Source: an uncultured Elusimicrobiales bacterium (GTDB lineage Bacteria > Elusimicrobiota > Elusimicrobia > Elusimicrobiales > Elusimicrobiaceae). From it: a stretch of DNA of 64,000 nt. A program made the position numbers and the translations under genes. Below are positions 18,300 through 27,657 of this stretch, in pieces. The stretch is from assembly GCA_944327085.1 (NCBI GenBank), contig CALVGG010000002.1, forward strand, positions 186,001-250,000, in the 5' to 3' direction. The notes below the pieces were generated by a model that was given only the letters and a program-made list of their open reading frames with translations, was not told the DNA's origin and searched no databases. Every line of letters starts with the position of its first letter. The stretch's first letter is position 1.

Positions 18300-18335
18300 A
18301 TAAAACCCCCGGTTTGTATGCCGGGGAATATTTAT
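18300..18335 (+). terminator. Terminator downstream of pbpC
   Basis: Stem CCCCCGG / CCGGGG with loop TTTGTATG and an AT-rich tail. It is slightly imperfect. Confidence 0.65.
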
Positions 18336-18367
18336 TCGTTGGGTAATCGGTCCTCTTTAAACTATGC

Positions 18368-18395
18368 TTGCTTTGTTTTTTTTTTTTGATATAGT
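18368..18395 (+). promoter_or_regulatory. Promoter with a twelve-T spacer upstream of pilin 1
   Basis: TTGCTT (18368-18373) and TATAGT (18390-18395) are separated by 16 bases, of which 18376-18387 are twelve consecutive T. The same arrangement recurs at 26269-26296. Confidence 0.55.
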
Positions 18396-18427
18396 GGGTT
18401 TTGTGTAAAGTATATGGGGGGATATTA

Positions 18428-18994
18428 ATGACGGAAAAAAACGCTGGATTTACGCTTATAGAACTGTTAGTGGTAGTTTTGATTATTGGTATCTTGGCTG
18501 CTATTGCTGTGCCGCAGTATGAAAGAGCGGTGGCCAAAAGCCGGGCCGGGGCTATGTTGCCTTTGGCAAAATCGGTATTAGATGCCCAGCAAGCATTTTT
18601 TATGGCAAACGGAAGATGGGCTACCACATGGGATGAACTAGATGTAGAAATGCCTACCCCTATCAGCACTACTCCGGTTAAGACTTCTTATGATATAGAA
18701 ACCAACTATTGGACCAATGTGAAAGTATATGACCACTTTCAAGCCGGGATACGTATGAATGATGATAAAATTGTGGGAATGGATTTTATTTTAATAGATC
18801 CTACTTATAAAAGTGAATACGGAGGGAAAGGCTTTCGGGTAGGGGTAAATGGCACGTGGGGAATTCCACAAGGCAAGTTGTATTGTTGGGAACATCACCT
18901 CAGTAAAACGCACGGCAGTTTTTGCGAAAAAATGCAAGGACTTAAAGACCCAATACAGCGTTCTTGGCATGGTACTTGGTGGTTAATGGATTAA
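18428..18994 (+). CDS. Type IV pilin-like protein (pilin 1)
   Basis: 188 residues. Leader MTEKNAG is cleaved before Phe by prepilin peptidase, and mature '[28 protein letters not shown]' carries Glu5 and the hydrophobic assembly helix. The globular part is distinct from the other pilins in the window and ends with a Cys pair ('YCWEHH...FCEKM') likely to form the D-region disulphide. I chose the ATG at 18428, with a GGGGG/GGAT ribosome site before it. It is monocistronic with its own promoter and terminator. Base composition is more AT-rich than the surrounding genes. Confidence 0.88.
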   Translation: MTEKNAGFTLIELLVVVLIIGILAAIAVPQYERAVAKSRAGAMLPLAKSVLDAQQAFFMANGRWATTWDELDVEMPTPISTTPVKTSYDIETNYWTNVKVYDHFQAGIRMNDDKIVGMDFILIDPTYKSEYGGKGFRVGVNGTWGIPQGKLYCWEHHLSKTHGSFCEKMQGLKDPIQRSWHGTWWLMD

Positions 18995-26241: not shown

Positions 26242-26288
26242 GTCAAGCAAGGGGTTTTTAAAACTTGCTTGACTTGTTTTTTTTTTTT
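26242..26288 (+). terminator. Terminator of pilin 2, overlapping the next promoter
   Basis: Perfect ten-base stem GTCAAGCAAG / CTTGCTTGAC followed by TTG and twelve T. The same bases also form the -35 box and spacer of the promoter at 26269-26296. Confidence 0.8.
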
Positions 26289-26296
26289 GATACAGT
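26269..26296 (+). promoter_or_regulatory. Promoter with a twelve-T spacer upstream of the Cys-rich exported protein
   Basis: TTGACT (26269-26274), 16-base spacer containing T12 (26277-26288), TACAGT (26291-26296). Layout is identical to the pilin 1 promoter at 18368-18395. Confidence 0.55.
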
Positions 26297-26385: not shown

Positions 26386-27657
26386 ATGTATCAAAAAATA
26401 CTGGCCGTCTTTGCGGTTTTTTTAAGTTTGCCCGCCTATGCGGCACAAACCAAAAACACCATGAAGATGGTGTCCTACTTTCCCGTACCGTATGTAGCGT
26501 ATGATACGGTATCGGCCAACAACGCCATGGATATTGGTATTTTAAACCAGTGTGCAATGGACATAAATAAAGGGTCCACCAATTTAGGTGGCAGTGCGTG
26601 CTCGTTGTACTTATATGGTAACGCAACGGGGGCGGACTTAAACCGCGGTTTGTTAAACGTAGCGGCCGGCAAGCTGGATTTAAACAGTGATGTAACCAAT
26701 GCGCGTATAGTAAGCAAGAAAGTGCAGTTGGGTACCTCGATGACGCCGGAAAACGGGTGGTTAGATATAGGTATTCCGTCCGGTAAGAATGACGAATATG
26801 ACGCGTTATACATCAGCAGTTTAAAGAACACGGGCAACAGCTTTAGACTTACGTCTAAGGAAAACGGGGCTAAAGTAAACAGTTTTCATATGTTTAACGA
26901 AATCAGCAACGATTTTCCCGGCTGTGCCGGTACGGTGACGTGGCAGGAGCTGGAATTAGCCGCCAATGTGAACAGCAATGAAACGTATACGGATATTTAC
27001 CTGGTATGCGGTGGAACGGCATCAGAGCCGGAAGAATGCCAAGCGCCGAATGGTAACAGTTATACGGAGAGCTGTCCGGATGGGCAGACAGGTACTATTA
27101 CGTATACTTGGAACCAAAGTGCGTGTAAGTACGATAAATTGGAGGAGTGTACCTCGTTAACTTGTGATGATTTTAGTTATAAAATGAACCATAAGTCAGA
27201 GTGCTGTCCTTCTGCTCCCTATACGGATTTGGCCTGTTATTATGAATGTCCGAAGTATCAGTGGACAGTGAATGGTTCCGGTAATTCTGGTTATCCTTCT
27301 ATCGTTTTTGGTTCTAACTGGGTAGAAAGAGCGTGCCGTCAAGGTAATCAAAGCTACAATGTTACTTGCAACAGTTCAGTAAGTGGAAATTGTTGGAATT
27401 TGAAAGCAATAGCTCCATCAAATGTAACAATTATATACAGCAACTATTCCTTAACGGATCCTTGCCTCCAATCAACCTGTTCTGCAAAGAATGAAGGAGA
27501 AATATGTTTGGTGGTGTCTAATGATCCAAACAATCCAGGGGAGAGTGTACGGTGCGGTTATGGCACCATGCCTAACCAATTTAGTTTCTTCGGAAATATT
27601 GTTGGCGTGAAATGCCAAAAGGATCCCAATTCATTATATTGTAAAAATGGTTGGTAG
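26386..27657 (+). CDS. Exported two-part protein: conserved N-terminal domain plus Cys-rich C-terminal extension
   Basis: 423 residues with a signal peptide (1-19, ending AYA). Residues about 20-208 are a clear paralog of the next gene, including 'AQTKNTMKMVSYFPVPYVAYDTV', 'SLYLYGNATGADLNRGLLNVAAGKLDLNS', 'NARIVSKKV', 'GWLDIGIPSGK' and 'VTWQELEL'. The first gene adds about 210 residues with some twenty Cys and many Asn/Ser, encoded by visibly more AT-rich DNA. The domain is not one I can name. It probably lies at the cell surface, perhaps with pilus-type structures because pilin 2 is adjacent (inference). Ribosome site AAGGAGG. Confidence 0.65.
   Translation: MYQKILAVFAVFLSLPAYAAQTKNTMKMVSYFPVPYVAYDTVSANNAMDIGILNQCAMDINKGSTNLGGSACSLYLYGNATGADLNRGLLNVAAGKLDLNSDVTNARIVSKKVQLGTSMTPENGWLDIGIPSGKNDEYDALYISSLKNTGNSFRLTSKENGAKVNSFHMFNEISNDFPGCAGTVTWQELELAANVNSNETYTDIYLVCGGTASEPEECQAPNGNSYTESCPDGQTGTITYTWNQSACKYDKLEECTSLTCDDFSYKMNHKSECCPSAPYTDLACYYECPKYQWTVNGSGNSGYPSIVFGSNWVERACRQGNQSYNVTCNSSVSGNCWNLKAIAPSNVTIIYSNYSLTDPCLQSTCSAKNEGEICLVVSNDPNNPGESVRCGYGTMPNQFSFFGNIVGVKCQKDPNSLYCKNGW

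What the first reader, a model, noticed from the sequence alone, without database searches (positions are those of the whole stretch)
18368..18395. Two promoters with an identical twelve-T spacer drive a pilin and a surface-type protein
At 18368-18395 (pilin 1) and 26269-26296 (Cys-rich exported protein) the -35 and -10 boxes are 16 bases apart and the spacer contains exactly twelve T at the same offset. Homopolymer tracts between promoter boxes are a known cause of phase variation in other bacteria because slippage changes spacer length. Here the two genes encode surface or exported proteins, which fits. No other pilin promoter in the window has this tract.
Basis: partly seen in the sequence, partly recalled or inferred. 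Interest (0 to 1): 0.6.

Follow-up and report, generated by a model that had tools for sequence, protein, structure and literature searches.

The report
Slippery T12 promoters of pilin genes
In a little-studied group of gut bacteria, many genes for pilus-type proteins share a promoter whose spacer is a run of about twelve T, and the run changes length between otherwise near-identical copies, so each gene may be switched on or off at random.

Summary
Confirmed, and larger than reported. Both promoters read TTGNNTTG-T12-GATAYAGTGG (none in 100 shuffles). They belong to a promoter family. In this genome all 17 runs of 10 or more T lie in such promoters, 14 of them exactly T12; with T8-T9 copies there are 21 sites, before 19 pilin-like and 2 exported-type genes. 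The motif occurs in 43 of 66 genomes of the genus, never in the reversed control.

Yet 12 is the mode (79 of 132 sites in five genomes surveyed without requiring 12), and pilin frames behind off-length tracts are open (40 of 41).

Best reading: slippage in the promoter spacer switches many pilin-like genes, as described for Mycoplasma hyorhinis vlp. Length change and the set point are shown; the effect on transcription and reversibility are inferred.

The parts
18368..18395 (+). promoter 1 (TTGCTT, 16-nt spacer, TATAGT) of the pilin-like gene
   Evidence: same motif at 21 sites in the genome
18376..18387 (+). T12 tract in the spacer of promoter 1
18428..18994 (+). pilin-like gene (188 aa, prepilin N terminus [17 protein letters not shown])
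   Evidence: N_methyl PF07963 33.5 bits over its cut-off
26269..26296 (+). promoter 2 (TTGACT, 16-nt spacer, TACAGT) of the exported-type gene
26277..26288 (+). T12 tract in the spacer of promoter 2; its counterpart in genome G064 is also T12 with flanks about 75% identical
26386..27657 (+). 423-aa Cys-rich protein with a signal-peptide-like start (by eye), no Pfam family at E 0.01

Best explanation
The T12 run is the spacer of a sigma-70-type promoter (TTGNNT, then YG-T12-GA, then TANANT, with a TG just before the -10 box) shared by a large family of pilin-like genes and a few exported-protein genes. Polymerase slippage adds or removes T. At 12 T the boxes are 16 nt apart, the working set point; at most other lengths the gene would be weakly expressed or silent. 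Each gene would switch on its own, so cells of one clone would carry different sets of pilins. Shown here: the promoter family, its clients, tract change that outruns change of the flanks, and a conserved set point of 12. Inferred: that length controls transcription, and that switching is reversible and useful.
For: All 17 runs of at least 10 T in the genome lie in these promoters, 14 exactly T12, none longer. 43 of 66 genomes of the genus carry the motif, reversed control 0. 289 of 308 sites keep TANANT. 7 of 9 cross-genome pairs with at least 98% identical 250-nt flanks differ in T number, 6 of 7 if pairs are grouped by family; 9 versus 12 T with 1,398 of 1,400 flanking bases the same and no gap. 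12 is the mode at 79 of 132 sites in five genomes surveyed without requiring 12 T, and 9 of 14 own sites and their best G064 partner are both T12 at 74-88% flank identity, 5 differ. Pilin frames are open for at least 100 codons behind 40 of 41 off-length and 137 of 138 T12 tracts with enough sequence held. Tracts are uninterrupted at 274 of 279 sites (partly biased towards pure T).
Against: No read-level, strain-level or transcript evidence. Tract lengths come from assemblies of metagenomes, where differences of one T may be noise. T13, which gives the textbook spacer of 17, is no commoner than T11 (21 and 22 of 308). The TG before the -10 box could make the -35 distance matter less. The strict promoter scan misses promoter 1.
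Confidence: 0.68

Rival explanations
1. The T12 is a fixed structural element, a stiff A-tract that sets spacer geometry or is read by a regulator. Slippage is unavoidable noise that selection removes, and it serves no switching purpose.
For: One length, 12, is the commonest in 13 of the 14 genomes with five or more sites by a wide margin and has the largest share in all 14; tracts are nearly always pure; the tract of promoter 2 stays 12 while its flanks drift to about 75% identity.
Against: 53 of 132 sites in the five broadly surveyed genomes are off-length, with open pilin frames behind 40 of 41 off-length sites that could be judged. Whether those copies are expressed is unknown, so this rival is not excluded.
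Confidence: 0.24
2. The shared T12 reflects only recent copying: promoter-plus-leader cassettes spread among pilin genes by recombination, without selection on the tract.
For: The 5' part of the window's pilin gene resembles paralogues (82% to the C5 copy over query 136-325) while the syntenic G064 gene has an unrelated upstream region.
Against: T12 recurs with two different downstream contexts (78 of 100 and 131 of 178 sites) and differing NN bases, and is kept in partners at 74-88% flank identity, although tracts can change with hardly any flank change.
Confidence: 0.06
3. Chance or assembly artefact.
For: A bare T12 is not rare in dinucleotide shuffles; differences of one T can be assembly noise.
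Against: The composite motif is absent from shuffles and present in many independent assemblies with reversed control 0; three of the seven length differences are of two or three T.
Confidence: 0.02

Closest known systems
[quoted passage not shown]
   Same: A multigene family of surface proteins in which every member has a homopolymer in the promoter region, and expression switches with insertions or deletions in it.
   Different: There lipoproteins, an A tract and about seven genes (passage of PMC4198240), with switching demonstrated; here pilin-like proteins, a T tract, 21 sites in this genome and up to 54 matches in another, one set point of 12, and no expression data.
Helicobacter pylori sabA promoter poly-T (passages of PMC2715451)
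   Different: A single gene, tract lengths 13-19 in two strains; its transcriptional effect was left open in that paper.
Neisseria meningitidis opc poly-C promoter tract (passages of PMC6389960); Bordetella fim C tracts (recalled, from no call)
   Same: Promoter homopolymer length tunes expression of a surface protein.
   Different: C tracts and few genes. The same paper found no phase variation for a 5-6 A tract at nspA, so a promoter homopolymer alone is no proof.

Membership tests
Promoter-spacer simple-repeat phase variation (vlp type) | homopolymer between the -35 and -10 boxes | tested here: met
   TTGNNT / TANANT on either side of the tract, 289 of 308 sites with TANANT; boxes are sequence-based, no start site mapped
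Promoter-spacer simple-repeat phase variation (vlp type) | same tract in a family of surface-protein genes | tested here: met
   19 pilin-like and 2 exported-type genes in this genome; surface location itself not tested
Promoter-spacer simple-repeat phase variation (vlp type) | tract length changes much faster than the flanks | tested here: met
   7 of 9 pairs with at least 98% identical flanks differ; across genomes only
Promoter-spacer simple-repeat phase variation (vlp type) | variants coexist within one clone or strain | not testable with these tools
   no reads or strain series at hand
Promoter-spacer simple-repeat phase variation (vlp type) | length determines transcription, reversibly | not testable with these tools
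   no expression data
Fixed A-tract promoter element (no switching) | one length kept at copies whose gene is still open | tested here: not met
   53 of 132 sites off-length; pilin frame open behind 40 of 41 off-length sites that could be judged

The most novel reading that the evidence does not exclude
A combinatorial pilus code: genomes of this genus carry from a few to over 50 promoters that slip independently around one common set point of 12 T, so a single clone could hold a very large number of pilin sets, while promoter-plus-leader cassettes are also exchanged between pilin genes. It would be the largest promoter phase-variation repertoire built on one motif that I know of (recalled comparison), in an uncultured gut lineage rather than a classic pathogen.
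Probability: 0.35. Interest if true: 0.8.

Novelty: new variant of a known kind. Interest (0 to 1): 0.62.

Why it matters
It offers a concrete reason why these bacteria keep scores of pilin-like genes: a chance subset may be used at a time. It would extend promoter-slippage switching to a phylum for which the literature searches returned no such report (an open-licence library, listings only). It can be tested with long-read gut metagenomes and simple reporters, and the natural copies with near-identical flanks and different T number form a ready-made length series.

Tried and rejected
Terminator reading of the T run: rejected. The hairpin upstream of promoter 1 ends 50 nt before the tract, and the motif is tied to pilin start codons.

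Sigma-54 or sigma-28 promoter: the boxes do not fit the recalled consensuses, while TANANT with a conserved last T fits sigma-70.

Dedicated sigma factor: a 364-aa sigma gene follows the T9 pilin gene on C5, but a hairpin with a T tail (by eye) lies between them; not pursued.

Loss of mismatch repair as the cause: one MutS gene is present; MutL was not searched.

Copies in viral contigs: none for two patterns.

Counts that were replaced or are biased. One search merged identical sites of different genomes and so dropped same-length pairs; one search replaced it. Many loci were found with a pattern that requires 12 T, so 222 T12 of 308 is inflated; 79 of 132 comes from five genomes surveyed from T7 or T8 upwards, where a few T8 sites may be chance matches (for example L310 and the T8 of L174). 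The frame count leaves out 95 sites on loci too short to judge (35 off-length, 60 T12) and 34 without a pilin motif within 220 nt, several of which proved to be pilin-like or exported-type genes on a closer look. Purity shares the pure-T bias; in the own genome, where pilins were also found by Pfam, one tract has an edge G (L047) and one is hard to align (L295). My regex recovered 47 pilin starts against 52 Pfam hits. In one search, 15 own sites had a G064 match; I left out L046, whose partner is the better partner of L028, and synteny was checked only for the two window loci.

Full report
What is there. The two sites are as described: TTGCTT-TG-T12-GA-TATAGT at 18368-18395 and TTGACT-TG-T12-GA-TACAGT at 26269-26296. 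The spacer is 16 nt, the tract has the same offset, and GG follows in both. The composite motif was found in none of 100 shuffles, although a bare T12 is not unusual under that model (25 of 100 shuffles had two or more). The first promoter precedes a pilin-like gene (18428-18994; N_methyl PF07963), the second a 423-aa Cys-rich protein with a signal-like start and no Pfam family (26386-27657). The other four N_methyl genes of the window lack the tract. A strict sigma-70 scan lists promoter 2 and not promoter 1.

The family in this genome. The window lies in contig C2 of a 1.67-Mb assembly of 12 contigs. All 17 runs of at least 10 T in it sit in this kind of promoter; 14 are exactly 12 long, none is longer. 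One of them (L052, T10) has a shortened upstream half. With runs of 8 and 9 there are 21 sites: 14 T12, one T11, two T10, one T9, three T8. Nineteen stand before pilin-like genes, two before exported-type genes. The other 28 of 47 pilin starts recovered have different upstream regions. One T8 copy (L292) precedes a frame of only 49 aa.

The family in relatives. With a pattern that allows 9 to 21 positions between TTGNNTTG and GATA, 43 of 66 genomes of the genus match, at most 54 times, and the reversed pattern never does. In the order, 44 of 149 genomes match a slightly stricter pattern: 42 of this genus and 2 of 18 of another genus of the family. A contig of Candidatus Avelusimicrobium excrementipullorum has the same length as a contig of G006, so the genus is probably Avelusimicrobium (inference). 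Two patterns gave no match in the viral contigs.

What the promoter looks like. Of 308 distinct sites in 53 genomes, 289 keep TANANT. At 274 uninterrupted sites the sixth base of the first box, free to be C or T in the regex, is T in 97-99%, and the last base of the second box is T in 98-99%. The G after the tract makes a TG just before the -10 box. The tract is uninterrupted at 274 of 279 sites found with a regex that allows interruptions; the regex gave 4 sites on reversed sequence. Sites were partly collected with pure-T patterns, so purity is somewhat inflated.

Does the length vary? Yes. I compared sites by their flanks alone (90 nt upstream, 160 nt downstream). Of 9 pairs from different genomes with at least 98% identity, 7 differ in T number: 10/12, 9/12, 8/10, 12/13 and three times 11/12; two are 12/12. 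Some pairs share a member; by family it is 6 of 7. In the longest comparison 1,398 of 1,400 flanking bases agree, without a gap, while the tracts are 9 and 12. Other pairs are less alike further out, so some are probably exchanged segments. Pairs between 95% and 98% differ in 2 of 9 cases, between 90% and 95% in 2 of 5, between 85% and 90% in 9 of 42 and between 80% and 85% in 11 of 23: length does not simply drift with divergence. Differences of one T could be assembly noise; those of two or three are hard to explain so.

Is 12 a set point? In the five genomes surveyed without asking for 12 T, 79 of 132 sites have exactly 12: 14 of 21, 15 of 23, 18 of 35, 12 of 25 and 20 of 28. Against G064, the genome with the best match to the window locus, 9 of 14 own sites and their best partner are both T12 at 74-88% identity and 5 differ, counted by eye. 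The second promoter of the window is one of the nine: its counterpart on the same G064 contig as the pilin locus has flanks about 75% identical and is still T12. The first promoter is not conserved: the syntenic G064 gene has an unrelated upstream region and no tract, and its frame ends after 69 aa in that assembly.

Are off-length copies dead? Pilin frames are open for at least 100 codons behind 40 of 41 off-length tracts that could be judged, against 137 of 138 behind T12, and the boxes keep their consensus. This fits a reversible off state better than decay; recent loss cannot be excluded.

Mechanism. Slippage of the T tract changes the distance between two promoter boxes. At T12 it is 16; a stiff A-tract with slightly tighter twist may make 16 behave nearly like 17 (general knowledge and inference). 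Other lengths should lower initiation. With 21 such switches here and more in some relatives, cells could carry differing pilin sets. The step from length to transcription is inferred. MutS is present, so slippage is not due to its loss.

Against this reading.

Comparison with what is known. The closest system is vlp of Mycoplasma hyorhinis, whose genes all carry an adenine tract in the promoter region that gains or loses bases as expression switches (passages of PMC10502178). H. pylori sabA has a promoter poly-T with several lengths in one strain (passages of PMC2715451). Neisseria opc uses a C tract, while a short A tract at nspA showed no phase variation in the test (passages of PMC6389960). 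A review of phase variation (passages of PMC11868660) notes that mutation-prone homopolymers should not be called phase-variable before reversibility is shown, which applies here. In the open-licence library the searches returned no paper on pilin phase variation in this phylum (listings only); a genome paper on Elusimicrobium minutum that I recalled is not held.

Verdict. Observation confirmed. New variant of a known kind, set apart by scale and by the common set point.

Noticed in passing
L048, L050, L059, L307, L320 and similar sites, just after the T tract: One large sub-class of these promoters (178 of 308 sites by its -10 context) often continues as an inverted repeat, TTTTTGATAAATTTTG ... 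CAAAATTTATCAAAAA, that includes the 3' part of the T tract (by eye). In G008 and G059 the right arm appears to encode the start of the pilin leader, with the ATG close to the expected transcription start, which would mean a nearly leaderless mRNA.
   Followed up: partly
window 18335-18524 against L243: Promoter plus leader of the window's pilin gene resembles paralogues, while the syntenic G064 gene has another upstream region and leader: 5' cassettes seem to be exchanged between pilin genes.
   Followed up: partly
genus-wide: 22 to at least 105 N_methyl genes per genome of about 0.9-1.8 Mb (105 is the scoring cap). Several genomes with many pilins lack the T12 motif; their promoters were not studied.
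   Followed up: no
L051 142-1236 (-): A second RpoD-type sigma factor gene (364 aa) directly follows the pilin gene with the T9 promoter, separated by a hairpin with a T tail.
   Followed up: partly
L002, L124, L195, L168: Exported-type proteins recur as clients of the promoter; the one behind L195 matches the window protein over 96 aa at 34% identity.
   Followed up: partly
L139: A Helicobacter contig has the same kind of motif with T13 and GATATAATG; the longest frame found starts 399 nt downstream. Chance or a separate poly-T promoter.
   Followed up: no
G000 contig starts of C1 and C5 (L295, L047); G064 C22 end (L407): Contigs end inside or shortly after genes with these promoters, so repeated 5' ends probably break assemblies and hide further copies.
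   Followed up: no
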